Shown here: positions 5,600 to 29,097 of the stretch, piece after piece
How the letters are laid out: each line of letters opens with the position of its first letter
How positions within the stretch are numbered: position 1 is the first letter of the stretch
DNA from: Thermoleophilia bacterium
Lineage (GTDB): Bacteria > Actinomycetota > Thermoleophilia > Solirubrobacterales > 70-9
Assembly: GCA_016650125.1 (NCBI GenBank)
Contig: JAENWT010000010.1
Span: 1-64,000, forward strand
Reading direction: 5' to 3'
Length of the DNA: 64,000 nucleotides
The notes under the pieces: generated by a model
Databases searched by the model: none
What the model saw: the letters and a program-made list of their open reading frames with translations, nothing else
What the model was told of the DNA's origin: nothing
Translations under genes and position numbers: made by a program

Positions 5600-6928
5600 T
5601 TAGGAAAGCGCTTGGCAGAGATCCGTGAATTCATTTATGAACTGATCCGCGTTCTCTCGGCTGAACGGCAGCGGTGGTCTGATTTTCAGCGTGTTCGCGG
5701 CAAGTCCGCTCGCGCCGATCAGGATTCTTCGGCTCATGAGTCCGTTGACGATCCTGGATGCCCGTGCCGGGTCCGCAGTACGCCCGTCGATTGGGTCCAC
5801 CACGTCGACCGCGACGAACAGACCTACTCCACGAACATCTCCCAGAAAAGGAAATCCTTTGGACTGCTCTCGCAGGCCGTCCCGAAGGTATCGCCCAACC
5901 ATTCGAGAATTGTCCTTCAGATCCTCATCCTCGAGCACATCAAGTACAGCCGACGCAGCTGCCACACAAACAGAGTTTCCACCGAAGGTGTTGAAGTACC
6001 TGATGTCGGGTCCGAACTTTCTCAAGAGATCGGCCCTGACTGCGATTCCAGCGATGGGCATGCCATTTCCCATGGGCTTTCCCATCACGGCCACGTCCGG
6101 TTCAAATCCGTGTCGCTCATATCCCCACATCGAGTCTCCGGTCCGTCCGAAACCGGCTTGAACCTCATCCGCGACGTAAAGGCCGCCTGATGCTCGCACC
6201 AATTTGCTGACTGCCGAGAGCAGGCCGACGGGATCGGGACGAAGGCCGTCACTGGAGAAGACACTGTCGGCCACGAAGCCGGCGAAGCCGTGACCGGATC
6301 GTTCCAGATCACTGATTGCTTCTGAAACGGATGCCACGAAAGTCTCTGTCTCCTGGCGCGAATCCCCAATCGGCGGGTCAGGAAAACTGACCACTCGAAC
6401 ACCCGGATCGAGTGGGGAATTCGTTCCGAGACTCGGCGAGATTCCGGCACAGGCAGCGGTCACGCCGTGGTACGCATTGGCAGTGACCACGATGCCCGCT
6501 TTTCCGGTGTTGAACTTGACTATGCGCAGAGCCAAATCGATTGCCTCACTCCCGGTGCAGGTGAACATCATGTTCTCCAGCCCGATGGAGTGCGTGGCAA
6601 GTAGCCGCTCTGCGTAATCGAGAATGGGAGCCGCTGGATACCTCGTGTGGGTGTTGAGGGTGGCTGCCTGTTGACTGATCGCTGCTACTACGGCGGGATG
6701 TGAATGTCCGACGGACGGCACATTGTTGTACGCGTCCAGGTAAGACTTGCCGTCTGTGTCATAAAGATGCACACCTTCACCTCGAACGAACTGAACTGGC
6801 CGGTCGTAGAAGAGTCGGTAGGCGGGTCCGAGTGTTTGGCTACGTCGGGAAATCAAGGCACGCGTTTCAGCATCAGAATCTCGCATGCCTTCCGAGCTGG
6901 ACGAGCTGTCTTTGCCGAAGCTACTCAC
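5600..6928 (-). CDS. PLP-dependent class III aminotransferase / phospholyase-like
   Basis: 442 aa from GTG 6928; an in-frame ATG 14 codons in is an alternative start. Class III features in order: the N-terminal strand GVHLYDTDGKSYLDAYNN, GHSHPAVV, FTCTGSEAIDLALR for phosphate binding, ANAYHG, the Asp of ADEVQAGFGRTG, and the Schiff-base Lys in VMGKPMGNGMP near residue 283. It lies 3 bp after the kinase gene at 6932, almost certainly co-transcribed. Family members beside an APH-type kinase include the 5-phosphohydroxylysine and ethanolamine-phosphate phospholyases. The pairing suggests phosphorylation followed by PLP-dependent elimination or transamination of an amino alcohol or hydroxy-amino acid. 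Substrate is inferred only. Confidence 0.85.
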   Translation of the reverse strand: MSSFGKDSSSSSEGMRDSDAETRALISRRSQTLGPAYRLFYDRPVQFVRGEGVHLYDTDGKSYLDAYNNVPSVGHSHPAVVAAISQQAATLNTHTRYPAAPILDYAERLLATHSIGLENMMFTCTGSEAIDLALRIVKFNTGKAGIVVTANAYHGVTAACAGISPSLGTNSPLDPGVRVVSFPDPPIGDSRQETETFVASVSEAISDLERSGHGFAGFVADSVFSSDGLRPDPVGLLSAVSKLVRASGGLYVADEVQAGFGRTGDSMWGYERHGFEPDVAVMGKPMGNGMPIAGIAVRADLLRKFGPDIRYFNTFGGNSVCVAAASAVLDVLEDEDLKDNSRMVGRYLRDGLREQSKGFPFLGDVRGVGLFVAVDVVDPIDGRTADPARASRIVNGLMSRRILIGASGLAANTLKIRPPLPFSRENADQFINEFTDLCQALS

Positions 6929-6931
6929 CCT

Positions 6932-8122
6932 TCAGGGCTTTCCCGTCGCACAGGCTTGCATCATTCGTTCAGTTACATGATCCCTGGACACTTCGCGAAG
7001 AAAGTCGAATTCAGTCCATGCCTGCGATCTGTTTCGCAGGATGTAGTCACGATTCTCCGGAAAGCGATCGGCTCGCCATTCGGAAATGATGATTCTCGAA
7101 ACGATTCGCATGAGCATGAGGTCGTAGAGAAGGGCTACTTCGCTCTCGAGCAGTTCATCGACCTCATGGTACCCGGCGACGATGGCAGCAGCCGACTCCA
7201 GCGGATCAGCCAGGTCCCAGAGCTGGTAGGCAGCGATTGCCAGATCGTTCGCAAGGGGAGCCCGAACCAGATCCCCGAAGTCGAGTATGCCGACGATCTT
7301 CTTTTCCGCTCCGTCAACCAGAATGTTGTCCCGGCTGAAATCGGTATGTACTGCTTGTGTCCGCAGCCGCTCCATGAGCGGACGAACGTCAGAATCGAAA
7401 AGGTCGAGGCTTTGAGCCAGCGAGTCATGGCCACGGCTGGCGGGCTGGAGTAGTTCTCGCAGCTCGACCGACCTCTGGACATCCCACAGGAGGTGCTGAT
7501 GATCCAGACCCGGATGGTCGAATGTGCGCAACGTACGATTGAGCGTGGCGAGCGTTCGACCGAGTTCGAATCGTAATTCTCGATCAGGATTCGCGCTTCG
7601 GAGGATCCTGCCATCGAGGTAGGTGGTCACTCTCGCTCTGCGACTGGATCCATCACCCGTCGTCAGTTCAACCTCTGCCTCACTTTTGCGATCGCGAACA
7701 ACATGTTGAACCGGCAACTCTGGTGCCTCAGCGGCGACATGCAGCAGAACGCTGGTAACCAGATTCGTGACGGTTTCATCTTCGTGGATGTGGGCAACCT
7801 TAAGAAATATTTTCGTCCCACTCTTGCCCCGAATCAAAAAGTTGTCATCTCGCTCCCCGGCGATCCGTTCAGCTTCTCCTTCAAACCCGTAGCTATCGAG
7901 AACGATCTCCTCAGCCTCCCGTGCGGTGAGATACGGTGATCTTCCGGTTGCCGAATCGTCGCCCTGTCGCCCGGATGGATGATCCGGGTTCTCAGCGTCT
8001 GCGGGCAAGTTCTCGGGAGTAGCCACTTCGTCCAAGCATAGACTGATGTCAACGGGCTCCGAGTCCGCCATTGGATCCTCCGAGTCCGCCATTGGATCTT
8101 TTGTCAGCCTCTCATTTAGCAT
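6932..8122 (-). CDS. APH-fold kinase, hydroxylysine-kinase-like
   Basis: The chosen start is ATG 8122 (396 aa). ATG 8092 is a good alternative, and upstream in-frame sequence to 8422 does not look coding. The kinase fold begins with FLIRGKSGTKIFLKV (nucleotide-binding Lys). The catalytic loop HTDFSRDNILVDG (HxDxxxxN) and the metal-binding DFGDLVRAPLANDLAI follow. This second motif resembles hydroxylysine kinases and the kinase half of fused aminotransferase/phosphotransferase proteins more than antibiotic kinases. The N-terminus carries a tandem 18-bp repeat (8062-8097) encoding MADSEDPMADSEP. It lies immediately upstream of a class III PLP enzyme. Confidence 0.75.
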   Translation of the reverse strand: MLNERLTKDPMADSEDPMADSEPVDISLCLDEVATPENLPADAENPDHPSGRQGDDSATGRSPYLTAREAEEIVLDSYGFEGEAERIAGERDDNFLIRGKSGTKIFLKVAHIHEDETVTNLVTSVLLHVAAEAPELPVQHVVRDRKSEAEVELTTGDGSSRRARVTTYLDGRILRSANPDRELRFELGRTLATLNRTLRTFDHPGLDHQHLLWDVQRSVELRELLQPASRGHDSLAQSLDLFDSDVRPLMERLRTQAVHTDFSRDNILVDGAEKKIVGILDFGDLVRAPLANDLAIAAYQLWDLADPLESAAAIVAGYHEVDELLESEVALLYDLMLMRIVSRIIISEWRADRFPENRDYILRNRSQAWTEFDFLREVSRDHVTERMMQACATGKP

Positions 8123-8769
8123 CGTTGGTCCAGCTGTGAGCCGCGAAGGGGCGTGGCTGACCAGCGTCAGTGAGTTTACACTGGCGAATGAGAAGCGCCA
8201 CTTTCGAGGAAGCAGGTTTTCCGTGATTCGACACGTCGCCTGCAGAGGTTCAGTTCGTCGCTCTACGGTCGCCTTCGCCGCCGTGATGACCACCGTCCGG
8301 GTCGCGCTCGGGGCCCCGGTCGTGCCAGCCTCCGCGACCAGTTTCAAGTACGAACGCGAGTGGGGGGGTCGGCGGCCCACAGGGGATAGCGAACTTCTAC
8401 GTGAATGACGTTTTCGACGCATATTCCGGCCGGATCCAGGATTTCGACACGAATGGCGGCTTCATTCGACGTCGGAGCGATGCTGGTCTCTGACGTAGCC
8501 CCCAGTCGAGTGGTCGATGAAGCTGGGCTACTAGCTGCCGACTTTTCCCTCGACCGGCACCGCACGATCTTTGCCTCTTTTCGCCGTTTTGCCCAAAAGC
8601 GGCCTACGACTACTTCGGATGTGCGCTACTCGAACATAGGGCAGAGCAATCGTGAGTGTTGTCTGGAAATGCGGTGCCAAGTGCCGATCCGGTCAAATCG
8701 GGTGAAACCAAATTGCGCCCGGCGTCGGCAAGTGTGGGAACCCGGGTCTGATTAAGACCAGGAAAGCAC
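8123..8769. other. Gap without a recognised gene
   Basis: About 650 bp between two genes of the minus strand. Short frames exist on both strands, but none has a known domain, a convincing ribosome site or a codon pattern that stands out. It probably holds the promoter of the kinase gene and possibly a degraded gene. Confidence 0.4.
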
Positions 8770-10182
8770 CTACTGCATCTCGTCGAGAACACTCAGCGCT
8801 TCGTCAAGGGCCCCAAGGGCAAAGTCGAGTTCTGATTCAGTCAAGCAAAGCGGAGGATTGATGGTCACGGCATTCGGTACAAAACTGAAGAGATGCACAC
8901 CACGCTTCAAGCATTCTTCGGCAATCAGGGCCGATGGATTGAGTTCGGGTTGCGGGTCCACCGAGGGGTCCCACCAACGGTCTTCGGGCAACCACCGCTC
9001 AAGTGTGACCGGATTTCGTACCAGCTCGAGTGCCCTTGCCAAACCAAGTCCGCGGACAGACTGTGCAGTCGGATGGATTGCGATCAATCGCTCGAGACCG
9101 GCGGTCAGCTTCTTGCCCATCTCCGCTACCCGTTCCGGAATCGACTCGGAGAGCATCGTTTCGATGGTTGCAGACACCGCAGCCATCGCCAGAGGGTGTC
9201 CGGAAAATGTGCTGTAGCTGTGCAACTTGCCGCTGGCGAAATACTCGGCAATCTCCTCACTCATCATCACCGCTCCGCAGGGCACGGCGGCGCTCGTCAG
9301 ACCTTTAGCAGAAATCATCAGATCCGGTTCGGCGTCTTCGTAGTGTTCATAGGCCCACCATTTGCCCGTACGGCCCATTCCGGAAAGGGCTTCGTCATCG
9401 ATCAAAAGGATCCCGAGTCGCCTTGTCATCTCACGGATCTGCCTGGGATAGTCCTCGTGAACCAGATAGCCGGCGGCTCCACACCAGAATTCAGTCATAT
9501 ACGCGGCGACGTTCTCGACACCCAAGGACCTGATCATCTTCTCCGTCTCGGCGACGCACGTCAAAGTGCCGTCCGGTTCGCGGCAGTGTTCGTCGGACTC
9601 GCCCAGGGCGCAGCGTTCGCAGTAGGCCGATGGCGCGATTCGGACCGACGGATCAGGAGCGGGTCGGTGGACGACTTCCTCGCTGTCGATAAACAGATTG
9701 TTCATGTAAGGGATTGTTGTCGCCGAACCTGCGCCGGTCGTCCAGCCGTGAAAGGCTGTCTGCCTCGTGAGAACGAGAGGGCGTCCCGTGCGCAAGCGGG
9801 CAAGCAGAAATGCGACTTCGACGGCCTCAGACCCTGAGCACGTGAACCTGACCGATCCTGCCCAGCCCGATTCGGGCATTGTACCTTTGAGTAGGAGATG
9901 CGAGGCTCTTGCTCGCGACTCTGCGGTCATCAACTCGGCCACGTGATCCAGCCTGTCCACAGCCTCATGAAGCGCAGCCCGAACCGATGGATGACCATGG
10001 CCGACGCCAGTGCAGGCGTACTGACTGTGAAAATCTAACAGGCGGGTACCGTCGGCCATCACCAACCAGGAACCCTCCGCCCGGTCCACCAGTTGCGGCT
10101 CATAGTCAGCCTTCTTCACTCCGGGATGCAAAATCAGATTTCGGTCCCACGATTCAACCTGCTCGATGTCGACTGGTTCCAT
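8770..10182 (-). CDS. Class III aminotransferase with Cys-rich insert
   Basis: ATG 10182 (470 aa) is preferred over GTG 10188 because AAAGG lies just upstream. Class III motifs: FHSQYACTGVGHGHPSV, FTCSGSEAVEVAFLLARL, AFHGW, the Asp pair in LLIDDEALSGMGRTGKWW, the Schiff-base Lys in MISAKGLTSAAVPCG near residue 292, and FSGHPLAMAA. It resembles omega-amino acid or taurine:pyruvate aminotransferases. Unusual: a short insert near residues 190-213 with YCERCALGESDEHC and a further Cys in LTC, which looks able to bind a metal. Substrate unknown. Divergent from the lactonase gene at 10424. Confidence 0.85.
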   Translation of the reverse strand: MEPVDIEQVESWDRNLILHPGVKKADYEPQLVDRAEGSWLVMADGTRLLDFHSQYACTGVGHGHPSVRAALHEAVDRLDHVAELMTAESRARASHLLLKGTMPESGWAGSVRFTCSGSEAVEVAFLLARLRTGRPLVLTRQTAFHGWTTGAGSATTIPYMNNLFIDSEEVVHRPAPDPSVRIAPSAYCERCALGESDEHCREPDGTLTCVAETEKMIRSLGVENVAAYMTEFWCGAAGYLVHEDYPRQIREMTRRLGILLIDDEALSGMGRTGKWWAYEHYEDAEPDLMISAKGLTSAAVPCGAVMMSEEIAEYFASGKLHSYSTFSGHPLAMAAVSATIETMLSESIPERVAEMGKKLTAGLERLIAIHPTAQSVRGLGLARALELVRNPVTLERWLPEDRWWDPSVDPQPELNPSALIAEECLKRGVHLFSFVPNAVTINPPLCLTESELDFALGALDEALSVLDEMQ

Positions 10183-10423
10183 GCTCACCTTTCAAGTAAT
10201 CGGTATGAACGATCCCGCAGCTAGCGGCGTCAGATTTATCCTCAGCGCGTCACAAAAGAAACATGTTGCCAAGGTCCCGGTCTTGCTACCGAATCAGTCC
10301 GGCATGCAATTGAATACGAAATGCTTGACAAGCCGGTTCCAGTATGCCACGCTCGGCCCTCTCCGCCCCTGGCTGGAGATATTCTCATTATTTTTGGATA
10401 CGCCAGCAACTTGAAAAGGTAAA

Positions 10424-11212
10424 ATGAACACCGATAAGTCACCCAAGGTTTACGCCGTTCAATGCGGCGGAGACATGACCAATTGGGCAGCACTCGACCC
10501 TTACGACGAACGCGCAGGAACCTTCGTCTACATGCCCACTTTCTTCTACGTAGTGAAACACGCCGAGGGCGTGGTCCTCTTCGACAGCGGTTACCATCCT
10601 GCTCTCGCAACCGACCCTGAGGCGAGGATTGGGGACGCCGCAGCGGTATTCCAAGTGGAGATTGAGGCGGATGACGACCTCACCTCAACCCTCGGTCGAA
10701 TCGGGCTGAAGCCGTCGGACGTAGATCTCGTAATTCAATCCCACCTCCACTTTGATCACGCCGGGGGACTTGGAGAGCTTCGACAAGCCGAAGTAATGGT
10801 CCAGGGCTCGGAACTAGCTTTCGCCCGTAACCCTCCTCTTTACCAGCGAGACCTCTATGTGCAGGATGATTTTGCCGATCCGATCAACTGGGTCGAGCTT
10901 GATGGGGATCGAGATGTATTCGGCGACGGGCGACTCCAGATCGTACAAACACCTGGGCACACAGCTGGTCATCAATCGCTGATGGTTCACCTTGATTCCC
11001 AGAGCCTCTTCCTACTTGCGGATGCGGCCTATCTACTTTCCAAGATGCGCGAGAGGATCCTGCCAGTTGTGCTCTGGAACCCAGATGTCATGATGGACAG
11101 CTGGGACAGGATTGAGGAACTCGAGAAAGAACACGACGCATTTCTTATCACCACGCACGACATTGATTTTCGTGAACGCCTGAAGCTCGCTCCAGAGTCC
11201 TGGTACGAATAG
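10424..11212 (+). CDS. MBL-fold hydrolase, N-acyl-homoserine-lactonase type
   Basis: 262 aa. The metallo-beta-lactamase motif HLHFDHAGG (HxHxDH) is near residues 107-112, then HTAGHQSL and LLADAAYL supply the third His and the bridging Asp, and THDIDF near the end gives the last His. The arrangement of N-terminal Asp-Ser-Gly (VLFDSGYHP) and HxHxDH resembles the AiiA/AttM (BlcC) lactonases. These open homoserine lactone or gamma-butyrolactone rings. No signal peptide, so cytoplasmic. The start ATG follows AAAAGG. In this nutrient island a metabolic lactone is as likely a substrate as a quorum signal. Confidence 0.8.
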   Translation: MNTDKSPKVYAVQCGGDMTNWAALDPYDERAGTFVYMPTFFYVVKHAEGVVLFDSGYHPALATDPEARIGDAAAVFQVEIEADDDLTSTLGRIGLKPSDVDLVIQSHLHFDHAGGLGELRQAEVMVQGSELAFARNPPLYQRDLYVQDDFADPINWVELDGDRDVFGDGRLQIVQTPGHTAGHQSLMVHLDSQSLFLLADAAYLLSKMRERILPVVLWNPDVMMDSWDRIEELEKEHDAFLITTHDIDFRERLKLAPESWYE

Positions 11213-11370: not shown

Positions 11371-12798
11371 TTAGTTCCGATCAGCCGGTGGTCGGGCCTC
11401 GTCAATCACGAGACCCAGAGTTCTGACGATCATCTCGAGCGAGGCATCGGCAATTGCTCCGTAGCCGACGACGAGTGCCGGGGGCAGCGGTTCGGTTCCC
11501 ATTTGGTAGGTAGCAATTCCCCGCAGATGTATACCCTTTTGAGCCATTTTTTTGCAAACGATCCCCTCCTCGACTCCCGGGGGAAGCCTGAGTACGAGGT
11601 GAAGACCGGCGGCGATTCCTTTTATTTCGCCATCCGGCACGGCGGATTCCAGTGCCTTGACCAGCCGGTCTCTGCGGGTTCGGTAGATGTGACGAGTTTG
11701 GCGGAGATGACGGTCGAGGTCGCCGCTTAGGATGAACTCGACAAAAGCCCGCTGATCGATCGCGCGGTGGCCACCGTCGGTGGCCCATCTCTCGCGCGCG
11801 ACCGAACCGGTCATAGCACTCGGAATGATCATCCAACCCATCCTCAGAGCGGGGGCCAGTAGCTTCGACACAGAACCGATCTGAATGCAACTCTCGGGCG
11901 CGAGACCTTGGATAGTTCCGACCGGGTCACGGTCATACCGGTAGGCGGAGTCGTAGTCGTCTTCGATGAGAATCTTGCCGTTGCTGGCTGCCCATTCGGC
12001 AAGCTGGGAACGGCGTTCCGGTGCCATGACAGCTCCGGTCGGGAATTGATGGGCCGGCGTGGCTACGACAGCGTCCACATCCCTTTCGATCACCCGGTCT
12101 ACGATTAGGCCGGATTCGTCGACCGGGCAGGGAACGACTTCTAGGCCCGCTCGGCGAATCACTTCCCACTGATCGTCATCGCTCGGGTTTTCGACGGCGA
12201 TGTGAGTCGCGCCACGACGGACGAGGACGCGACAGGCCAGCGACAGACCCTGGGTGTAACCGTGGGTGATCACTATTCGTTCACCCGTACCCGATACTCC
12301 CCTAACTCGCCGGAGATATGAGGCCAGTTCTTCCCTCATCTCCGGAGTACCTCTCGGATCTCCGTATCCCAGCTCCGAGTTGGGCATTCCGGTCAGGCTG
12401 CGGCGAACCGCAGCCAGCCATTCTTTACGAGGGAAGAGGCTGAGGTCCGGAACGGTGCCGACTAGTTCATGGGTGAGCCGTGGTTTGAAGTCTGCGTCGC
12501 CGGTCGTGGTGACCTCGACCTGCGACAGATTGCGTACCCGCGGAGCGGCGCCCTGTCGTTGGTCGATGTAGCCCTCGGCGACCAATTGCGCGTATGCGTC
12601 GGTGACCACACCCCGTGAGACACCGAGGTCAGTGGCGAGGGCCCGGCTAGATGGCAAACGGGTTCTAGGACCAAGATGACCGGCCTTGATGCTATCCCGC
12701 AGCGCGTTCGCCAGCTGCTGGCGCAGAGGTATGGAGGCCGCTCGATCAACGAACAGCGGCAACTCGTAAAAGCGACTGGACCTATTTGAAGTATTCAA
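11371..12798 (-). CDS. MocR/PdxR-type transcriptional regulator (GntR-aminotransferase fusion)
   Basis: 475 aa from TTG 12798, with AAGGG upstream. Residues about 15-85 form a GntR winged helix (IPLRQQLANALRDSI, LPSSRALATDLGVSRGVV, AYAQLVAEGYI). A linker leads to a full fold-type I aminotransferase domain: GYGDPRGTPEMREELASYL, the IEDDYDSAYRYD segment and the PLP Lys in IGSVSKLLAPALRMGW near residue 310. MocR proteins use PLP or its adducts with amino compounds as effector. The gene is divergent, with 85 bp between starts, from the nitrilase-like gene and the Liv transporter, which it most likely controls. Confidence 0.9.
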   Translation of the reverse strand: MNTSNRSSRFYELPLFVDRAASIPLRQQLANALRDSIKAGHLGPRTRLPSSRALATDLGVSRGVVTDAYAQLVAEGYIDQRQGAAPRVRNLSQVEVTTTGDADFKPRLTHELVGTVPDLSLFPRKEWLAAVRRSLTGMPNSELGYGDPRGTPEMREELASYLRRVRGVSGTGERIVITHGYTQGLSLACRVLVRRGATHIAVENPSDDDQWEVIRRAGLEVVPCPVDESGLIVDRVIERDVDAVVATPAHQFPTGAVMAPERRSQLAEWAASNGKILIEDDYDSAYRYDRDPVGTIQGLAPESCIQIGSVSKLLAPALRMGWMIIPSAMTGSVARERWATDGGHRAIDQRAFVEFILSGDLDRHLRQTRHIYRTRRDRLVKALESAVPDGEIKGIAAGLHLVLRLPPGVEEGIVCKKMAQKGIHLRGIATYQMGTEPLPPALVVGYGAIADASLEMIVRTLGLVIDEARPPADRN

Positions 12799-12806
12799 AC
12801 TGGCCC

Positions 12807-12835
12807 TTGACCTTATGCCAGTTGCGACCTACTAT
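12807..12835 (+). promoter_or_regulatory. Sigma-A-type promoter for nitrilase-like/Liv operon
   Basis: TTGACC at 12807-12812, a 17-bp spacer, then TACTAT at 12830-12835, placed 48 bp before the ATG at 12884. It lies in the 85-bp divergent gap with the MocR gene, where the regulator would be expected to bind. Confidence 0.65.
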
Positions 12836-12883: not shown

Positions 12884-13723
12884 ATGTCACGACGAATGAC
12901 CATTGCATTAGCTCAACTTGCAACCGATGAGACCAAGGCCCAAGCCCTTGAGAAGGTTGAGCGCTACGTGGCCGATGCCAGCCAGCAAGGAGCTGGGCTG
13001 ATTGTGCTGCCCGATCTCACTTGCCTCCCGTTCTTCCCTCAATACCGCGCAGAATCAAAATGGATGGAACTGGCCGAAGAAGTGCCAGACGGTCCGTCAA
13101 CTCAGGCGTTTTGCAACCTGGCTCGCGAATACGGAATTGCGATCGTCGGCTCGATCTATGAAAAGCGGAGGGACGGTGTCTACTACGACGCTGGTATCGC
13201 GATCGACAAGGACGGAAACTTCCTCGGCTCGCAGCGGATGATGCATATTCCGGAAGAGCCTGGCTTCAACGAGAAGTACTACTACAAGGCCGGCAACTCG
13301 AAATACCCGGTTTTCGAAATTGATGGCATCAAGGTGGGCATCGCCATCGGACAAGATCTCTTCTATCCGGAGCACCACCGTCTCCTCGCAATCCACGGGG
13401 CGGAGCTTGTCGTCGGGCCAAACGCAATCGGTGCCGAAACTGACCCTCTGGTTCTCTGTAGCCAGGCCGCAGCTGTGATGAACCAGTTTTACGTGGGTGT
13501 TGCCAATCGCACTGGGCCGGACGGAATCCATACTTTCATTGGACGCAGCCATGTCGCCTCTCCGGATGGATCGCTGCTCGCTAAGGCCGATGGAACCGAC
13601 GAGCAGTTGGTGGTGCAAGAGCTGGACTTCAATGCGCTGTCCGAGCTCCGACGATCCCAAAACTATTGGCTCCGGGATCGTCGGCCTGAAACCTATGGCG
13701 ATCTCGTGCTGGATGAGGTCTGA
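12884..13723 (+). CDS. Carbon-nitrogen hydrolase fold protein lacking the catalytic triad
   Basis: The start is ATG 12884 (279 aa), after GAAAGGCGG; an upstream in-frame ATG at 12815 would overlap the promoter. The whole length resembles N-carbamoylputrescine amidases, including SQRMMHIPEEPGFNEKYYY and WLRDRRPETYGDL. The nitrilase triad is Glu-Lys-Cys. Here Glu is Asp in VLPDLTCLPFF (residue 44), Lys is Met in SQRMMHIP (119), and Cys is Gly in VGIAIGQDLFYPE (156). The surrounding fold residues are kept, so the change is selective. It is probably a non-catalytic member that binds an N-carbamoyl or amide ligand or acts as a partner protein. First gene of the Liv operon, opposite the MocR regulator. 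Confidence 0.85.
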   Translation: MSRRMTIALAQLATDETKAQALEKVERYVADASQQGAGLIVLPDLTCLPFFPQYRAESKWMELAEEVPDGPSTQAFCNLAREYGIAIVGSIYEKRRDGVYYDAGIAIDKDGNFLGSQRMMHIPEEPGFNEKYYYKAGNSKYPVFEIDGIKVGIAIGQDLFYPEHHRLLAIHGAELVVGPNAIGAETDPLVLCSQAAAVMNQFYVGVANRTGPDGIHTFIGRSHVASPDGSLLAKADGTDEQLVVQELDFNALSELRRSQNYWLRDRRPETYGDLVLDEV

Positions 13724-13764: not shown

Positions 13765-14829
13765 ATGTTTGGTCGGTTGAAAGGTTCCAGGTCGCCACTT
13801 GGCGAAGGCTTGATCATTTCGGTTCTTCCAGTGATCGTTCTGGTTCTTGTGGTTGAACTCATTGTCGGGTTTGGGAGTGCGGCAAATCAGAGAACGCTTT
13901 TGACGTTCTTGGTTACTTTGACTGCCGTTTTGGGGCTCGGAATATTTGTTGGCAATAGCGGGATCATGAGTTTCGGCCACGCGGCTTTCATGGGAATAGG
14001 CGCTTATTGTGGAAGTTTGCTCGTCCTTCCGATCACGATCAAGGATCAAGCCCTTCCGGATCTACCGGGCTTTATTGGGAGTGCTCACTTGGAGTTCATT
14101 CCCGCGATTTTGATCACTTTGGTCGTGGTCGGTTTTGTGGGGTTCTTGATCGGACTTCCTTTGTCCCGAATGGCCCCTCCCAGTTTTGCGATTGCATCGA
14201 TTGCTTTTTTGATCATCGTTCAGGTGGTGCTCGATAGTGCTACGACCTTCACTCGCGGCGCCGCGACGCTTTACGGTGTGCCTCCGTTGTTGAGTGTGCA
14301 GGGGGCCCTTGCGATCGCTGTGATTGCGACTTTTGTGGCGGGAATGTTCAAAACTTCTCGATGGGGGCTTCAGCTCAGGGCGAGCCGGGAGAATGAAGTG
14401 GCCAGCAGGTCAACCGGAGGCAATATTGAGCGAAATCGTTGGTTGGCTTGGACGGTAAGTGCAGCTATTGCTGGTGCGGCGGGCTTCATGCTGGCGACTA
14501 CGATCGGCGCTTTTTCGCCGAAGGCGTTCGGTCTGACCCAGACGTTCATAATCTTGTCCATGCTGCTGGTGGGTGGCATGACCTCGGTTTCAGGCGCAAT
14601 TGCCGGTACGGCAGCGATAACGGCAATCACCGAGTTTCTCAGGCCTTATGAAAGTGGATTGTCGCTTGGACCACTGGAAACCGGAAGCCTCTTCGGCCTG
14701 AGCACGTTTGGTTTGGGCCTGGTGATTTTGCTGACCCTGTACTTCAGGCCTTCGGGGATTTTCGGCTATCGGGAGCTGAACCAGGTCCTGCCCGGCAGGT
14801 TCCTCAAACGCAACCACCGGGAGCCGTAA
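13765..14829 (+). CDS. livM: Branched-chain amino-acid-type ABC permease LivM
   Basis: 354 aa with roughly nine to ten hydrophobic segments. The LivM signature SFGHAAFMGIGAYCG is near residue 72, and the EAA-type loop region near RASRENEVASRSTGGN contacts the ATPases. It forms the inner-membrane channel with LivH (17614). Only 1 bp separates it from livG. The DNA is distinctly A/T-richer than the outer parts of the window. Confidence 0.9.
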   Translation: MFGRLKGSRSPLGEGLIISVLPVIVLVLVVELIVGFGSAANQRTLLTFLVTLTAVLGLGIFVGNSGIMSFGHAAFMGIGAYCGSLLVLPITIKDQALPDLPGFIGSAHLEFIPAILITLVVVGFVGFLIGLPLSRMAPPSFAIASIAFLIIVQVVLDSATTFTRGAATLYGVPPLLSVQGALAIAVIATFVAGMFKTSRWGLQLRASRENEVASRSTGGNIERNRWLAWTVSAAIAGAAGFMLATTIGAFSPKAFGLTQTFIILSMLLVGGMTSVSGAIAGTAAITAITEFLRPYESGLSLGPLETGSLFGLSTFGLGLVILLTLYFRPSGIFGYRELNQVLPGRFLKRNHREP

Positions 14830-14830
14830 A

Positions 14831-15631
14831 GTGGTCGACGAATCTTCCGGGGACCATCGTGTTCTTTCCCTGAAGGCATCTTCTATCGTCAAGAAGTTTG
14901 GCGGATTCATTGCCCTGAATGGTGTTACGTTCGAGGCTTTACGAGGAGAAATAACTGGTCTGATCGGTCCGAACGGGTCCGGCAAGACCACCTTGGTAAA
15001 TCTGCTTTCCGGCGTCCTCATTCCCTCCGACGGAGAAGTAGTTCTGGATGGATCCAACATAACCGATGTTCCGCCGCACGTAAGGGCGAAGTCGGGTATA
15101 GCCCGCACGTTTCAACACATTTGTCTCTTTGAGCATCTAAGCGTCCTGGAGAATATTGAAGTTGGAGTCCTGCTCCACGATCGCGGTGCCTGGGGAAGCG
15201 ATCGCCGTGACAAGGCGGAAGAGTTGCTTGAGAAGCTGAATCTCAACGGACTGGCCGGACGGACAGCCGGAACGCTGTCCTACGGCGATCAGCGTCGGGT
15301 GGAGATAGCCAGAGCTTTGGCCACCGATCCCTCGTATCTTTTGTTGGATGAGCCGGCTGCCGGGATGCTTCCGGTGGAATCAAATTCGCTTCTCGAAATA
15401 CTTCTACACGTTCATGAGACGTTTGATCTCGGAATCATCACCATCGATCACGATCTGCGCCTGATCAGTCGGCTGTGCGATCGCGTCGTTGTTCTCAACT
15501 CGGGTGAAGTACTAGCCATGGGCAGTCCCAGTGAAGTGCAAGAAGATCCCCGGGTCATTGAGGCTTACCTGGGACGTAGAAGGTCCAGGACATCGCAACC
15601 AGATCAAAAGGAAGGTAAAAGTGTTAGTTAA
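14831..15631 (+). CDS. livG: ABC transporter ATPase LivG
   Basis: 266 aa from GTG 14831, directly after the livM stop. Walker A GPNGSGKTT, Q-loop ARTFQHICLFEHLSVLENIE, signature LSYGDQRRVEIARAL, Walker B YLLLDEPAAGM and the switch His in TIDHDL are all present. The LivG-specific insert after the Q-loop fits the family. It powers import with LivF. The end overlaps the binding-protein start by 11 bp. Confidence 0.92.
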   Translation: MVDESSGDHRVLSLKASSIVKKFGGFIALNGVTFEALRGEITGLIGPNGSGKTTLVNLLSGVLIPSDGEVVLDGSNITDVPPHVRAKSGIARTFQHICLFEHLSVLENIEVGVLLHDRGAWGSDRRDKAEELLEKLNLNGLAGRTAGTLSYGDQRRVEIARALATDPSYLLLDEPAAGMLPVESNSLLEILLHVHETFDLGIITIDHDLRLISRLCDRVVVLNSGEVLAMGSPSEVQEDPRVIEAYLGRRRSRTSQPDQKEGKSVS

Positions 15632-16844
15632 GAGATTCGGAAGTCGAGGTAGGGTGGCGTCTTTGGCCACATCCGCAATCCTGTGTTTCGGGGTGGTTTT
15701 GGGCGTTTCGGCATGCGGGAGCAATGAGTCCGGTGGGGGTTCTGGAGGCGGAGATACCTATAGAATTGGCGTGGCTTCTGCGCAAACCGGCTTCATAGCA
15801 CCATTCGATCAACCGTTTATCGCAGGCTTGGAGTATGCGGTGGATGAAATTAATGCTGCCGGCGGGCTCAACGGTTCAATACCGATCGAGTTAGATGTCA
15901 GGGATGGCCAGTCAGACGCCGGCAAGACGGTCACCGTTGCTCAGGAACTCGTAGACTCAGGTGTCGACTTCCTGATCCTTCCCGGCGACGGCGACTTGGC
16001 AGTCGCCGGTGGTGCTGTGGGGCAGCAGGCAGGGATTCCAATGATGTCGGCTGGGACTGTCCCAGGGATGACCGACAAAGTCGGCGACTACATGTTTGGC
16101 ATCGCCTTTGGTGACAACTCCGACGCTGCGGTGCTCGGAAAGTACGCCGCAGACCAGGGCATCAAGACCGCGTTCTTGTTGAAGTCAAATGACTCTACTT
16201 ACACTGAGGACGTACCCGACTATTTCGCGGAGGTGTTCACGGAAGCCGGGGGTGAGATCGTTGGTGAAGCCCAATACGACCTGGGTCAGCAAGATTTCAG
16301 CGTAACTGTCACCGACATTCAGAACCTGAACCCGCAGCCCGACATCATCATGACTGCTGCATACGAGCCGGATTTCCCTGCTTTTGTCAAGAAGTTGAGA
16401 TCAGCGGGATCCAAGGTGCCGGTATGGGCTGCTGACGCCATTGATACTCCCGGCGTGTACGCACTGGGTGACAAGATTGATGGGACCGTGTTGACAGCTT
16501 CGGCTTTCGATGCTCCCGGTACTCCGTACGCGAAATTCGTCAAGGGCTTTACGGAAGCCACGGGATCTAAACCTGAGGCAAGCTACGCCGGTCTGGGTGG
16601 CGATGCTGTCAAGGTCATCGACGCTGCTGTGCGCGATGCTGGGTCGACTGACGGTGCCCCAGTAAGGGACGCAATTGCGAGCCTAAAGAATGTTCAGAGT
16701 GTAACCGGCAAGATTTCATACGACTATCCGGGATCAAACCGGATGCCGTTGAAGACGGTCTACCTGCTCAAGCCCAAAGACGGGGCTCCAGAGCTGATCG
16801 ACACCATCATCCCTTCGCCGAGCGATATTCCGCCGTCAAAGTAG
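15621..16844 (+). CDS. Amino-acid-type ABC substrate-binding lipoprotein
   Basis: GTG 15621 (407 aa) is preferred because GGAAGG lies just upstream and it yields a proper signal peptide: a basic N-terminus, a hydrophobic core and lipobox VSAC, with a Ser/Gly-rich linker after the lipidated Cys. The mature part has the periplasmic-binding-protein type I fold of the Leu/Ile/Val family (RIGVASAQTGFIAPFD; YAVDEINAAGGLNG; VDFLILPGDGD). It captures the substrate outside the membrane for LivMH. Family members bind branched-chain amino acids, but also urea, amides and aromatic acids. The island context leaves the ligand open. Confidence 0.88.
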   Translation: MLVKRFGSRGRVASLATSAILCFGVVLGVSACGSNESGGGSGGGDTYRIGVASAQTGFIAPFDQPFIAGLEYAVDEINAAGGLNGSIPIELDVRDGQSDAGKTVTVAQELVDSGVDFLILPGDGDLAVAGGAVGQQAGIPMMSAGTVPGMTDKVGDYMFGIAFGDNSDAAVLGKYAADQGIKTAFLLKSNDSTYTEDVPDYFAEVFTEAGGEIVGEAQYDLGQQDFSVTVTDIQNLNPQPDIIMTAAYEPDFPAFVKKLRSAGSKVPVWAADAIDTPGVYALGDKIDGTVLTASAFDAPGTPYAKFVKGFTEATGSKPEASYAGLGGDAVKVIDAAVRDAGSTDGAPVRDAIASLKNVQSVTGKISYDYPGSNRMPLKTVYLLKPKDGAPELIDTIIPSPSDIPPSK

Positions 16845-16859
16845 GACCCGGAAACGAGC

Positions 16860-17612
16860 ATGAAAGTGGATACGGACAGGCCTACCATTAGGCCATTACT
16901 GGAAATTGAAGATCTTTCAGTTTCTTATGGCGCCATCGCGGCTACGCATGGGGTGAGCCTGTCCGTATATCCAGGCGAGATAGTTGCTCTCATTGGCAAC
17001 AACGGGGCGGGCAAGTCGAGCACGCTCAACGCAATCATGGGATTGGTCAAGCCGAATGGGGGACGGGTGACGCTAGATGGGACGGACGCGACGGCGAAAC
17101 CACCGGAACGGCTGATGAACGCCGGACTGACCCTTTCCCCTGAAGGACGCCGGATATTCGGAGGGCTTTCTGTTCAGGAGAACCTCTCAATAGGTTCAGG
17201 GCCAGGTGTCAGCCGGTCGGAGCGACTTCAACGGCAGGATGAAATGTTTGAATTGTTTCCGATTCTGAATGAACGCAAGAGTCAGATGGGCGACACATTG
17301 TCTGGTGGCGAGCAACAGCAGCTCGCCTTGGGCAGGGCTTTGATGTCTCGTCCGAAGGTACTCATGCTCGACGAACCCTCGTTGGGTCTCGCGCCTCTGA
17401 TAACCGAGCAAATATTCGAAATTATTCAGAAACTTGGAGAGCAGGGCATGACGATTCTATTGGTGGAACAGAATGTCGATCGTGCTATGGATGTAGCCGA
17501 CCGAGCTTATGTGCTCTCGGCTGGAAGAGTAGAAATGGACGGCACCACCGAGGAGCTCGCTAGTTCCGGTGACCTGGAAGCCGCTTATTTCGGCACAATG
17601 CAGGGCGTCTGA
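16860..17612 (+). CDS. livF: ABC transporter ATPase LivF
   Basis: 250 aa. Walker A GNNGAGKSS, Q-loop LTLSPEGRRIFGGLSVQENL, signature LSGGEQQQLALGRAL, Walker B VLMLDEPSLGLAP, switch His position occupied by Gln in LLVEQNVDRA, as is usual for LivF. Second nucleotide-binding subunit of the Liv importer. Confidence 0.92.
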   Translation: MKVDTDRPTIRPLLEIEDLSVSYGAIAATHGVSLSVYPGEIVALIGNNGAGKSSTLNAIMGLVKPNGGRVTLDGTDATAKPPERLMNAGLTLSPEGRRIFGGLSVQENLSIGSGPGVSRSERLQRQDEMFELFPILNERKSQMGDTLSGGEQQQLALGRALMSRPKVLMLDEPSLGLAPLITEQIFEIIQKLGEQGMTILLVEQNVDRAMDVADRAYVLSAGRVEMDGTTEELASSGDLEAAYFGTMQGV

Positions 17613-17613
17613 C

Positions 17614-18507
17614 ATGGATCAGGTAATTCAGAATGTGATCAATGCGCTCAGCCTCGGTGGTATTTACGCCCTGCTGGCACTTGGGCTGGCAATCGTCTAC
17701 AGCATCCTTCAGTTGATCAACTTTGCTCACGGAGCGTTGTTGACCACTGCCGGCTATGCGATGTACTTCGCCATCTCGGCGGGTATGCCGTTCGCGGTCG
17801 CGGTAATCTTGGCAATTGTGGCTTCGACGGTAGCGGCCATGTTGATGGAGCGAATCGGGTTCCGACCGTTACGGGGAGCCAACTTCGCAATCCTTATTCT
17901 GAGTAGCTACGCGATCAATCTGATCATGGTGACCATGTTCCAGGTCTTCATTTCTGCCAGAGCGAAGAGCGTCAACGTTCCATCCTGGATCGAGGGATCG
18001 CTGCAGTTGGGTGGAGTACAGGTGGGCGTCGTCGACTTGGTAACGATCGGGGCGACGGTAGTTGCACTGGTGAGCTTGGTGGTCTTTTTCCAGAAGACCA
18101 AGGGCGGCATCAGCATTCGTGCCGCTGCTGCGGATTTCGACATAGCGCGTCTGATGGGAATCAGAGCGAACGTCGTGATTGCCGGCGCGTTTGGCCTGTC
18201 CGGACTCCTGGCCGGAGTGGCGGGGGTCCTGCTGGTGGCGAAACGTGGCTCCGTTGACCCACACCTTGGTGATATTCCGGTGATCAAAGCTTTCATAGCT
18301 GCGACGATCGGTGGCCTGGGAAGTCTCCCGGGAGCAGTAGCTGGCGGATTCTTCCTCGGTGCAGTAGAAATTTGCCTCCAGGCGACTCTCCCCGATGCGC
18401 TCCAGGCATATCGCGATGCTTTCGTTCTGTCGCTGGTAATCCTGGTACCGCTTATCCGTCCAGGCGGACTCGTCCGCGCACAAGAGCCCGAGGGTGCCAG
18501 CGCATAG
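17614..18507 (+). CDS. livH: Branched-chain amino-acid-type ABC permease LivH
   Basis: The start is ATG 17614 (297 aa), 1 bp after the livF stop. About eight membrane segments; the LivH signature LQLINFAHGALLTTAGY is near residue 27, and the coupling loop AADFDIARLMGIRANVV near 172. It completes the transporter in the order permease, ATPase, binding protein, ATPase, permease. Confidence 0.9.
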   Translation: MDQVIQNVINALSLGGIYALLALGLAIVYSILQLINFAHGALLTTAGYAMYFAISAGMPFAVAVILAIVASTVAAMLMERIGFRPLRGANFAILILSSYAINLIMVTMFQVFISARAKSVNVPSWIEGSLQLGGVQVGVVDLVTIGATVVALVSLVVFFQKTKGGISIRAAAADFDIARLMGIRANVVIAGAFGLSGLLAGVAGVLLVAKRGSVDPHLGDIPVIKAFIAATIGGLGSLPGAVAGGFFLGAVEICLQATLPDALQAYRDAFVLSLVILVPLIRPGGLVRAQEPEGASA

Positions 18508-19148: not shown

Positions 19149-20504
19149 ATGATCAACGAAACTCGACTTCAAGAACTTCTCACGAAGGAACGGGCCACCT
19201 TCGCCGGGAGCCACCTCCGCTCCCGTGCTGCCTACGAAAATGCGACCCATCTTTTCGGCAAGGTCCCAATGACCTGGATGAACAAGTCCGCGGCCGGCCA
19301 CCCGGTATATCTCGACACTGCGCGTGGTGCCAAAGTCACCGATATCGACAACAACACCTACCTCGATCTCTGTTTGGGCGATACCGGGGCGATGGCGGGA
19401 CATTCGCCCGAGGCCACCGTCGAGGCCGTACAGAGACGGTTCGGGGAACTGGGAGGCGCGACCGCGATGATGCCGACCGAGGATGCCGAATGGGTTGGAG
19501 AGGAACTGACCCGTCGTTTCGGCATTCCACTCTGGAGCTTTTCTCTTTCCGCTACTGACGCCAACCGCTGGGCGATCCGTCTGGTCCGGGCCCTATCCGG
19601 TCGTCCCAAGATTCTGGTCAACAGCTACTGCTACCACGGGTCGGTAGACGAGTCGCTGATCGTGGTCGGACCCGATGGAGAGGGTGAATCCCGCGAAGGC
19701 AACGTCGGGGCTCCGGTCGACGTCACCCAGACCAGCCGAGTGGCGGAATTCAACGATCTCGATGCTCTTGAGAGGCAGCTCGCCCACGGTGACGTCGCGG
19801 CTGTCCTGATGGAGCCGGCGCTTACCAATATTGGCATCATTCTGCCAGAGGACGGATACCTCGACGGTGTGCGCGAGCTGACCCGCGAGCACGGGACCCT
19901 GCTGATCATCGACGAAACCCACACCTTCTCCGCCGGACCGGGCGGCATGACCGCGAGCGAGGGGCTGCAGCCCGACGTGCTCACGATCGGCAAGGCGATG
20001 GGCGGGGGAATTCCGTGCGGCGCCTACGGACTCTCGGGCGAGCTGGTAGAAAGGATCGAATCCCTGAAGGACCTTGATCTGATCGACACGGGTGGAGTCG
20101 GTGGCACCCTGGCCGGCAACCCGGTTTCGGTTGCGGCCATGCGTGCGACTCTCGGCGAGGTCCTTACCGACGATGCTTTCGTCGGCATGACTGACCTGGC
20201 GACCCGGTTCGTAGATGGAGTCGAATCCGCTTTCGACAAATACGAACTTCCCTGGTCGATCCGTCAGCTCGGCGCCCGTGCGGAATATCGCTTCACTTCG
20301 CCGGCCCCGCGCAACGGCACCGAGTCTGCGGCCGCGCACAATCCCGACCTTGATGACTACATGCATATCTACCTCGCGAACCGAGGCATTCTCCTGACCC
20401 CCTTTCACGCTATGGCATTGATGTGTCCGGCAACCACGGCTGAAGACGTCGATCTCCACACTGAGGTCTTCCACCAGGCGGCGGCGGACCTAGTCGGAAC
20501 GTGA
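19149..20504 (+). CDS. Class III aminotransferase, glutamate-1-semialdehyde-aminomutase-like
   Basis: 451 aa. Motifs: the TDIDNNTYLDLCLGDTGAMAGHSPEA strand region, ATDANRWAIRLVRA (where GSEA is usual), YHGSVDESL, the Asp of IIDETHTFSAGPGG, and the Schiff-base Lys in LTIGKAMGGGIPCGAYG near residue 281. It resembles GSA-aminomutase relatives that act on small amino acids, not the heme-pathway HemL. Its stop overlaps the next start in GTGA, so it is translationally coupled to an SDR: transamination followed by reduction or oxidation of the product is likely. GC is higher than in the Liv genes. Confidence 0.83.
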   Translation: MINETRLQELLTKERATFAGSHLRSRAAYENATHLFGKVPMTWMNKSAAGHPVYLDTARGAKVTDIDNNTYLDLCLGDTGAMAGHSPEATVEAVQRRFGELGGATAMMPTEDAEWVGEELTRRFGIPLWSFSLSATDANRWAIRLVRALSGRPKILVNSYCYHGSVDESLIVVGPDGEGESREGNVGAPVDVTQTSRVAEFNDLDALERQLAHGDVAAVLMEPALTNIGIILPEDGYLDGVRELTREHGTLLIIDETHTFSAGPGGMTASEGLQPDVLTIGKAMGGGIPCGAYGLSGELVERIESLKDLDLIDTGGVGGTLAGNPVSVAAMRATLGEVLTDDAFVGMTDLATRFVDGVESAFDKYELPWSIRQLGARAEYRFTSPAPRNGTESAAAHNPDLDDYMHIYLANRGILLTPFHAMALMCPATTAEDVDLHTEVFHQAAADLVGT

Positions 20505-21286
20505 GGGGCACCGGGTTCGACCTGAAAGGGCGGGTCGCGCTGATTACCGGCGCAGGTAGTGCCGATGGCATCGGTTTCGCGACCGCCAGGTCGTTGGGCC
20601 GGCTCGGCGCATCGGTCGTCATCGCAGCCACCACGGACCGGATCGAGGAACGAGCCGATGTACTACGGGCGGAAGGTATTGAGGTGGCTACGGCAACCGG
20701 GGACCTCACCTATCCCGATTTCGCCTCAGGCGCGGTCCGTTCAGTGGTCAAAGGCCTTGGCCGGCTCGACGTGCTGGTCAACAACGCCGGGATGACCGCG
20801 ATCTCGGATCCAGAGTCACCCGCGAGCTTGGCCGAGATGAGTGACGAGCAGTGGCATTCGACGATCAACCGCAACCTGACCACCGCCTTCAACGTGACCC
20901 GGGCGGCGCTCGGCCCAATGTTCGAAGAGGGCTTCGGGCGGATCATCAACGTCGCTTCGACTTCCGGCCCGGTCACCGCCTATGCGGGAGATGCGGCGTA
21001 TCACGCGGCGAAAGCGGGAATGGTCGGTTTGACCAGGGCCCTGGCGATCGAAGTCGCCGGCAGGGGAATCACGGTGAATGCTGTGGCTCCGGGATGGATT
21101 GCGACACCATCATCCACCAAGCATGAATTGGCAATGGGAAACGCGACACCTTTGGGCCGGTCGGGCACACCCGCCGAGGTGGCATCCGCAATCGCCGGCC
21201 TGGCGATGCCAGCGGCCTCCTACACCACTGGCCAGTTGCTGGTGGTAGACGGAGCGAATTCAATTGAAGAGGAAAAGACTGTCTGA
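20501..21286 (+). CDS. Short-chain dehydrogenase/reductase
   Basis: 261 aa from GTG 20501, which overlaps the aminotransferase stop. TGAGSADGIGFATA cofactor loop near residue 16, NNAG near 93, Ser in NVASTSG, and YHAAKAG with catalytic Tyr/Lys near 168-172. The loop has the longer GxGSxxGIG spacing. It probably handles the carbonyl compound made by the upstream aminotransferase. Confidence 0.87.
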   Translation: MRGTGFDLKGRVALITGAGSADGIGFATARSLGRLGASVVIAATTDRIEERADVLRAEGIEVATATGDLTYPDFASGAVRSVVKGLGRLDVLVNNAGMTAISDPESPASLAEMSDEQWHSTINRNLTTAFNVTRAALGPMFEEGFGRIINVASTSGPVTAYAGDAAYHAAKAGMVGLTRALAIEVAGRGITVNAVAPGWIATPSSTKHELAMGNATPLGRSGTPAEVASAIAGLAMPAASYTTGQLLVVDGANSIEEEKTV

Positions 21287-21319: not shown

Positions 21320-21808
21320 ATGGTGAGCCAACCCCGATCCAGCGGCGAAAGCCCGAAACCCATCTCTCTGGACGAGCTGGACAAGGCGATCCTGTCCGAA
21401 CTGCAGGCTGACGGGCGGATGTCCTACACCGATCTCGGCCCGAAAGTGGGTCTGTCCGCGCCGGCTACCCGCCAGCGGGTCCGGCGGTTGATCGCGCAGG
21501 AGGTCCTGCAGATCGTCGGGGTTACCGATCCTCTGCGGCTCGGAATGCCGGTGATGGCGATGCTAGGCATCCGGGCCGAAGGCGACCTGCGGAAATTGGC
21601 TGATCGCATCAGCCAGGAGGCCGCTGTCATTTACGTGGTCCACACGGCCGGCCTGTTTGACCTGCTGGTCGAGGTGGTCTGCCGCGAACCCAGTGAGCTT
21701 CTCGACCTTGTGAACCATCAGATCGGCAGTCTCGAAGGAGTCAAGGAGATGGAGAAACTGGTCTACCTGGACATCCATACCCACCGTTTCAACTGGGAAG
21801 TACCCTGA
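21320..21808 (+). CDS. Lrp/AsnC-family transcriptional regulator
   Basis: 162 aa. The N-terminal helix-turn-helix (LDELDKAILSELQADGRMSY, then LSAPATRQRVRRL) is followed by the RAM ligand-binding domain (MAMLGIRAEGDLRKLADRI, then YVVHTAGLFDLLVEVVC). Lrp proteins respond to amino acids. Placed directly after the aminotransferase/SDR pair, it is a likely local regulator. Confidence 0.9.
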   Translation: MVSQPRSSGESPKPISLDELDKAILSELQADGRMSYTDLGPKVGLSAPATRQRVRRLIAQEVLQIVGVTDPLRLGMPVMAMLGIRAEGDLRKLADRISQEAAVIYVVHTAGLFDLLVEVVCREPSELLDLVNHQIGSLEGVKEMEKLVYLDIHTHRFNWEVP

Positions 21809-23890: not shown

Positions 23891-24002
23891 TGAATCACAC
23901 CTACAACGAAATCCCTGATTTCCGAAGGCGAGAGTTTCAGTCCGATTTGTCCTCTTGTGGAACTTCATTTGTCCGAACCCGGGCCCAGAGGGACCATTGG
24001 AT

Positions 24003-27919: not shown

Positions 27920-27981
27920 AGAAAGTGGGCGATTCAGCCTAGTTGGTGTCGAGTTACTAGTCAGGAACAAGAGGAGGAGAC

Positions 27982-29049: not shown

Positions 29050-29097
29050 CGTCGATACCTGGGTAGAGAACCGCGTGATTAGCAAATCGAGTCGGTA

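What the first reader, a model, noticed from the sequence alone, without database searches (positions are those of the whole stretch)
12884..13723. Nitrilase-fold protein with all three catalytic residues replaced
Against N-carbamoylputrescine amidases the Glu, Lys and Cys of the triad read Asp, Met and Gly, while neighbouring fold residues (MHIPEEPGF, DLFYPE, RDRRPE) are kept. That points to a retained binding or structural role and not decay. It heads the operon of a Liv-type importer and is divergent from a PLP-sensing MocR regulator, so it could be a ligand-binding or signalling pseudoenzyme for an amino or ureido compound.
Basis: partly seen in the sequence, partly recalled or inferred. 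Interest (0 to 1): 0.78.

Follow-up and report, generated by a model that had tools for sequence, protein, structure and literature searches.

The report
Triad-less nitrilase-fold pseudoenzyme heading transporter operon
A protein built like an enzyme that cuts carbon-nitrogen bonds has lost every residue of its cutting triad but kept the pocket that holds an amine, and it sits first in an importer operon, so it has probably become a non-catalytic amine-binding protein; only one copy is known so far.

Summary
Confirmed: ORF 12884-13723 (+, 279 aa) is a full-length nitrilase-fold protein of the N-carbamoylputrescine amidase (CPA) branch. Its triad columns read D44/M119/G156, against E/K/C in all other homologues aligned bar one paralogue. 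It is not general decay: 25 of 29 other strictly invariant positions are kept, the model superposes on a CPA crystal structure (Z 34.7), and codon composition is normal. Mapped on that structure, the chemistry positions (E48D, K121M, C158G, W159Q, Q161L) are replaced; most of the substrate funnel, tail-amine Glu187 and second Glu132 are kept or conservatively changed. Best reading: a catalytically dead protein that still binds a terminal-amine compound, in a probably horizontally acquired, MocR-flanked amine import/transamination island. Amidase activity is unlikely; binding and purpose are inferred. No D-M-G clade was found: it is a singleton in about 1,000 genomes of its phylum, and a motif scan of about 85,000 species found only E-K-G variants. 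Selection on this gene itself is therefore unproven. But the same genome carries a second triad-less nitrilase (Q-Q-G), syntenic in eight genomes and under purifying selection.

The parts
12884..13723 (+). nitrilase-fold (CN_hydrolase) protein with D-M-G in place of the E-K-C triad
   Evidence: model m73cffb1478f5 pLDDT 81.6, pTM 0.85; best PDB match MtCPA Z 34.7
13013..13015 (+). codon 44, Asp in place of catalytic Glu (MtCPA Glu48)
13238..13240 (+). codon 119, Met in place of catalytic Lys (MtCPA Lys121)
13271..13273 (+). codon 130, second Glu kept (MtCPA Glu132)
13349..13351 (+). codon 156, Gly in place of nucleophile Cys (MtCPA Cys158); next residues W159Q and Q161L also changed
13436..13438 (+). 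codon 185, tail-amine-binding Glu kept (MtCPA Glu187)
12807..12835 (+). sigma-70-like promoter candidate, TTGACC-17-TACTAT, 49 nt upstream of the start codon
   Evidence: consensus match only; 0.1 expected in shuffles
11371..12798 (-). divergent MocR-type regulator (GntR HTH + aminotransferase-like domain; PdxR model 374 bits, above its cut-off of 320)
13765..14829 (+). LivM-like permease
14831..15631 (+). LivG-like ATPase
15624..16844 (+). Liv-type substrate-binding protein; 50% identical to Shinella/Ensifer plasmid orthologues, no close match in own order
16860..17612 (+). LivF-like ATPase
17569..18507 (+). LivH/UrtB-like permease
19149..20504 (+). class III aminotransferase (PRK07046 family, above cut-off); 72% identical to a Streptomyces plasmid transaminase that is also followed by an AsnC regulator
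20501..21286 (+). SDR oxidoreductase
21320..21808 (+). Lrp/AsnC-type regulator
8770..10188 (-). class III aminotransferase
6932..8422 (-). APH-type kinase; with the next gene it is the split form of the PRK06148 kinase-aminotransferase fusion (N-terminal part of this ORF may not be coding)
5600..6928 (-). class III aminotransferase/phospholyase-type domain of the split PRK06148

Best explanation
The gene encodes a catalytically dead member of the N-carbamoylputrescine amidase branch of the nitrilase superfamily, kept for non-catalytic ligand binding. Shown from sequence: the Glu/Lys/Cys triad and two further chemistry positions (oxyanion-hole Trp159, water-holding Gln161) are replaced, while the fold, most of the hydrophobic funnel, the rim Glu that holds the tail amine and the second Glu are kept or conservatively changed. 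Inferred: with Lys gone, the bottom of the pocket holds two acids (D44, E130) and space left by Cys to Gly, and the rim holds E185, so the pocket is suited to a free diamine or omega-amino compound and no longer to its N-carbamoyl form. Inferred: as first gene of a Liv importer operon divergent from a PLP-sensing MocR regulator, and next to several terminal-amine aminotransferases, it acts in the cytoplasm as an amine-responsive binding or adaptor protein (sensor, buffer or partner subunit) for the imported compound. Step estimates: not a Cys-dependent amidase 0.93; retained for function and not decaying 0.7; binds a terminal amine 0.45; acts in regulation of, or hand-over in, this pathway 0.35.
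For: Triad substitutions unique against about 65 homologues. 25 of 29 non-triad strict invariants kept, against about 33% identity elsewhere in the same pair (Fisher p about 1e-8), with losses focused on the triad (p 0.007). AF2 model has the alpha-beta-beta-alpha nitrilase fold; best PDB match is MtCPA with cadaverine, Z 34.7, 2.6 A, 261 residues. Pocket mapping on PMC4812014: E48D, K121M, C158G, W159Q, Q161L changed; Y54F, P125, Y130F, W162F, A183, I184, E187, E132 kept or conservative. Glu187 is the CPA residue that binds the tail amine; the hydantoin/ureido-type homologues have Gly or Ser there. Context: MocR, Liv importer, three class III aminotransferases, split PRK06148 kinase-aminotransferase. 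The same Liv transporter lies beside class III aminotransferases in Shinella and Paracoccus, and beside a kinase-aminotransferase fusion in Paracoccus. MocR regulons are reported with gabT plus COG2334 kinase and ABC importers (PMC5320631). Precedent in the same genome: the NIT2 clade is triad-less, syntenic in 8 genomes, dN/dS 0.21-0.50. Coding pattern intact (GC1/2/3 = .65/.40/.64, matching the island).
Against: Singleton: no orthologue in 232 genomes of the order, 399 of the class or 396 of the phylum, nor by motif in about 85,000 species, so dN/dS on this gene cannot be computed. It has a long branch (1.32), compatible with relaxed constraint. Invariants could have been kept before a recent loss. 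Asp190 of the CPA rim is not kept and the dimer-mate Trp277 is not clearly kept. Loop 121-138, which carries part of the pocket, is modelled at pLDDT under 50. Liv orthologues elsewhere work without it.
Confidence: 0.45

Rival explanations
1. Young pseudogene or relaxed passenger: the enzyme lost its triad recently after the island was acquired, and the protein is still made but does nothing.
For: Singleton with a long branch; island of lower GC (0.55-0.60 against 0.63-0.68), with a transposase at its right edge and no close LivK in own-order genomes; Liv orthologues lack a nitrilase neighbour.
Against: Intact 279-codon frame with normal codon-position composition. Five chemistry positions changed while 25 of 29 other invariants are intact and the remaining losses are mild (N102D, F134Y, L170I, with W189L the exception); random decay should not single out the chemistry. 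Neighbouring operon genes are intact full-length frames.
Confidence: 0.27
2. Partner subunit: the protein forms mixed oligomers with an active nitrilase of the cell and adjusts its activity, as mixed nitrilase complexes do in grasses.
For: Nitrilases share a dimer with a swapped C-terminus (PMC4812014); the dimer-arm motif RDRRPE is kept. Active E-K-C paralogues exist in the genome (C26, C16, C23, C15). Mixed NIT4A/NIT4B complexes are reported in sorghum (PMC5154151).
Against: The closest active paralogue is only about 30% identical and lies on another contig; no active nitrilase lies in the island.
Confidence: 0.15
3. Still an enzyme, by a shifted nucleophile (Cys47 in PDLTC, or Cys192) or by acid/base chemistry of D44 and E130.
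For: C47 is three residues after D44 and C192 lies in the helix behind the pocket; the second Glu is kept.
Against: Position 47 is a variable loop residue in relatives. Lys, the oxyanion-hole Trp and the water-holding Gln are also gone, so a thiol alone would lack the rest of the machinery.
Confidence: 0.07
4. Sequencing or assembly artefact.
For: The genome is a draft in 41 contigs.
Against: Three separate codons far apart, plus W159Q and Q161L; frame intact; contig 116 kb. Five scattered in-frame replacements are not an error pattern.
Confidence: 0.02

Closest known systems
N-carbamoylputrescine amidase (CPA/AguB, TIGR03381; MtCPA, PDB 5h8i-5h8l)
   Same: Fold, length, HIP..EK[FY][FY], [FY]PE and RDRRP motifs, second Glu, tail-amine Glu187, most of the hydrophobic funnel
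   Different: No Glu/Lys/Cys triad, oxyanion-hole Trp and water-holding Gln replaced; 187.6 bits against a cut-off of 410; operon without agmatine deiminase
NIT2 clade: triad-less nitrilase-fold proteins in the same genome and 7 others of its order
   Same: Triad lost in the same way at two positions (Lys to an uncharged residue, Cys to Gly), second Glu kept, in an amine-related operon
   Different: Only about 30% identical; Q/L-Q-G; strictly between an M24 peptidase and an HDAC-like amidohydrolase; closer to the window protein by neither profile score nor the free tree, though one clade is not rejected (AU p 0.33)
E-K-G nitrilases of Chromatiaceae/Verrucomicrobia and of Deltaproteobacteria/CSSED10-310/Methylomirabilis
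   Same: Nucleophile Cys replaced by Gly in the same motif
   Different: Glu and Lys kept; two separate well-supported clades; beside argS in two of the loci read, or a TrpD2-like gene
Beta-ureidopropionase/hydantoin-pathway nitrilases of Actinobacteria and Bacilli
   Same: Best whole-protein scores outside CPA (38-41% identity)
   Different: Intact E-K-C; Gly or Ser at the tail-amine position; beside dihydropyrimidinase

Membership tests
Nitrilase superfamily (fold) | CN_hydrolase domain over the full length | tested here: met
   PF00795 165.5 bits, profile 1-256/256
Nitrilase superfamily (fold) | alpha-beta-beta-alpha sandwich | tested here: met
   AF2 model pTM 0.85; 5h8j_P Z 34.7, 2.6 A over 261 residues
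Active nitrilase-superfamily enzyme | Glu-Lys-Cys triad | tested here: not met
   D44, M119, G156
Active nitrilase-superfamily enzyme | measured amidase/nitrilase activity | not testable with these tools
   needs a bench assay
N-carbamoylputrescine amidase (TIGR03381) | score above the curated cut-off | tested here: not met
   187.6 bits against 410.25
N-carbamoylputrescine amidase | tail-amine Glu187 and hydrophobic funnel | tested here: met
   E185; F50, P123, F128, F160, A181, I182; Asp190 is not kept and Trp277 is not clearly kept
N-carbamoylputrescine amidase | agmatine deiminase neighbour or pathway | tested here: not met
   none among the genes identified within about 8 kb on either side
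NIT2 pseudo-nitrilase clade | phylogenetic placement in the clade | tested here: inconclusive
   outside in the free tree; union not rejected, AU p 0.33; profile scores place it with CPA-like enzymes, 268.8 against 67.3 bits
NIT2 pseudo-nitrilase clade | M24 - NIT2 - HDAC-like operon | tested here: not met
   window context is MocR and Liv
Pseudoenzyme (retained, functional) | purifying selection with catalytic residues absent | not testable with these tools
   no close orthologue available; tested and met only for the NIT2 clade

The most novel reading that the evidence does not exclude
A class of nitrilase-fold proteins in this bacterial order has been converted, at least once and perhaps twice in one genome, from C-N hydrolases into dedicated amine-binding proteins that serve amine import and catabolism operons. 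The former active site holds a free diamine or omega-amino compound between the rim Glu and a bottom acid pair, and the protein signals to or partners with the MocR-controlled pathway.
Probability: 0.25. Interest if true: 0.75.

Novelty: new variant of a known kind. Interest (0 to 1): 0.55.

Why it matters
Pseudoenzymes are well known for kinases and some other folds. A search of 5.4 million open-access papers found none that holds both 'nitrilase superfamily' and 'pseudoenzyme'. Annotation pipelines would name this protein an amidase. If right, it shows that the nitrilase pocket can be recycled as an amine sensor or carrier, and it offers simple tests. It also led to a conserved, syntenic, triad-less nitrilase clade (NIT2) under purifying selection, where the pseudoenzyme claim does not rest on one sequence.

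Tried and rejected
D-M-G clade beside Liv transporters: not found in the genomes searched or in the plasmid regions read. Orthologue with a normal triad in the same operon: none; nearest E-K-C relatives are 36-41% identical and none of those whose neighbourhood was read is syntenic. Liv substrate-binding protein as a guide to orthologous operons: same LivM-G-K-F-H order in Alphaproteobacteria plasmids but no nitrilase. Membership of the window protein in the NIT2 clade: not supported, not excluded. First motif pattern was mistyped and found nothing even in the window; rebuilt by script, checked on the window and rerun. Profile comparison first left out the window protein by mistake; repeated with it. 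Papers on nitrilase pseudoenzymes: none found; the PNAS paper on heteromeric plant nitrilases is not held. No operator could be named in the 85-bp MocR/nitrilase gap.

Full report
What was checked. The ORF 12884-13723 (+) is exactly as described: 279 codons, no stop, CN_hydrolase over its whole length. Searches of the own genome, the order (232 genomes), the class (399) and the phylum (396) gave homologues of at most 41% identity. About 65 of them were extracted and aligned. All read Glu, Lys and Cys at the triad columns, except a second protein of the same genome; the window protein reads Asp44, Met119 and Gly156.

Loss is targeted, not general. Among 18 non-redundant E-K-C relatives, 32 columns are strictly invariant. 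The window protein keeps 25. The seven lost are the three triad residues, N102D, F134Y, L170I and W189L. Three of three triad positions among seven losses has a chance of 0.007, and the other invariants are kept at 86% against about 33% identity at the remaining columns. Codon-position GC (.65/.40/.64) fits the neighbouring operon genes. A caveat: invariants could have been kept while the protein was still an enzyme, so this alone does not date the loss.

Structure and pocket. AlphaFold2 with 11 sequences gives pLDDT 81.6 and pTM 0.85. The best solved structures are those of N-carbamoylputrescine amidohydrolase from Medicago (MtCPA), Z 34.7, 2.6 A over 261 residues. The MtCPA paper (PMC4812014) assigns roles: Glu48, Lys121 and Cys158 triad; Lys121 and Trp159 backbone oxyanion hole; Gln161 and Trp162 hold a water; Glu132 second acid; Tyr54, Tyr130, Pro125, Trp159, Trp162, Ala183, Ile184 and a dimer-mate Trp277 the hydrophobic middle; Glu187 the tail amine. 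Mapped by alignment, the window protein has Asp, Met and Gly at the triad, Gln for Trp159 and Leu for Gln161, but Phe, Phe, Pro, Phe, Ala and Ile in the middle section, Glu at 132 and Glu at 187. Asp190 is not kept and Trp277 is not clearly kept. So the chemistry is gone and the amine-binding funnel is mostly kept. The inference is that two acids at the bottom without the Lys, a rim Glu and room left by Cys-to-Gly suit a free diamine or omega-amino compound. The loop 121-138 is modelled poorly, so this geometry is not shown.

Context. The gene heads LivM-G-K-F-H and is divergent from a MocR-type regulator. Around it are three class III aminotransferases, an APH kinase, an SDR and an AsnC regulator. 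The kinase and aminotransferase at 5600-8422 are the two ends of the PRK06148 fusion, split. The Liv substrate-binding protein is 50% identical to Shinella and Ensifer plasmid proteins, with the same transporter gene order. In Shinella these lie beside a class III aminotransferase, N-formylglutamate amidohydrolase, a glutamine-synthetase-like gene and an isochorismatase-like hydrolase, and in Paracoccus also beside the PRK06148-type fusion. No nitrilase is present there. Published MocR regulons join gabT, a COG2334 kinase and ABC importers (PMC5320631). The common theme is compounds with a terminal amine. The region 4-32 kb has GC 0.55-0.60 against 0.63-0.68 in the flank to its right, with a transposase at 33.0-33.9 kb, and own-order genomes lack a close LivK: probably an acquired island.

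Is it a clade? No. A pattern for the CPA motif with Gly in place of Cys, run over about 85,000 species, gave ten loci, all with Glu and Lys intact (E-K-G), in two separate well-supported clades. The window protein joins E-K-C relatives L035/L036 with moderate support (89/84) and a long branch of 1.32. It is a singleton in the genomes available.

Precedent in the same genome. G000:C21:11095-11883 (NIT2) is another nitrilase-fold protein with Q-Q-G. Seven other genomes of the order hold orthologues (41-61% identity), all triad-less: Gln/Leu, Gln, Gly, with the Gln and the Gly invariant and the second Glu invariant. In every locus where the flank is held they lie between an M24 peptidase and an HDAC-like amidohydrolase; L109 lacks the M24 side because its locus ends. 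Pairwise dN/dS is 0.21-0.50. So triad-less nitrilase-fold proteins are retained in this lineage. Whether the window protein shares ancestry with NIT2 is open: the AU test does not reject it (p 0.33), but profile scores place the window protein with the CPA-like enzymes (268.8 bits against 67.3).

Verdict. The protein is very unlikely to be a Cys-dependent amidase. The best-supported reading is a retained amine-binding pseudoenzyme in an acquired amine-uptake island; a recently dead gene is the main rival, because there is one sequence only. The most solid outcome of the follow-up is the conserved NIT2 pseudo-nitrilase operon.

Noticed in passing
G000:C21:11095-11883 (L070 11095-11883; L103-L109): Second triad-less nitrilase-fold protein (Q-Q-G), conserved in 8 genomes of the order in a syntenic M24 peptidase - pseudo-nitrilase - HDAC-like/acetylpolyamine amidohydrolase - solute-binding protein operon; dN/dS 0.21-0.50.
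   Followed up: yes
L073-L082: Ten nitrilases with Cys to Gly but Glu and Lys kept (E-K-G), in two clades across several phyla; two of the Deltaproteobacterial ones lie directly upstream of argS and a SPOR-like gene, a Chromatiaceae one beside a TrpD2-like gene.
   Followed up: partly
window 4000-33900: Probable acquired island: GC 0.55-0.60 against 0.63-0.68 to the right, GC3 about 0.6 against 0.88 in the Ppx gene at its left edge, transposase (rve) at 33005-33883.
   Followed up: partly
window 23270-32588: XRE-cupin regulator, hydantoinase/oxoprolinase A and B, then a sugar-type ABC importer (binding protein, double ATPase, permeases): a hydantoin or oxoproline-type catabolic cluster 5 kb from the Liv operon.
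   Followed up: no
window 5600-8422: Two-gene, split form of the PRK06148 APH-aminotransferase fusion; the fused form lies beside the orthologous Liv transporter in Paracoccus seriniphilus.
   Followed up: partly
window 12786-12798: Perfect small palindrome TTGAAGTATTCAA at the divergent MocR/nitrilase gap, next to a -35/-10-like pair (12807-12835); possible operator, seen by eye only.
   Followed up: no
window 10424-11212: Metallo-beta-lactamase-fold lactonase (AttM/AiiA/4-pyridoxolactonase-like, below cut-offs) next to the MocR gene.
   Followed up: no
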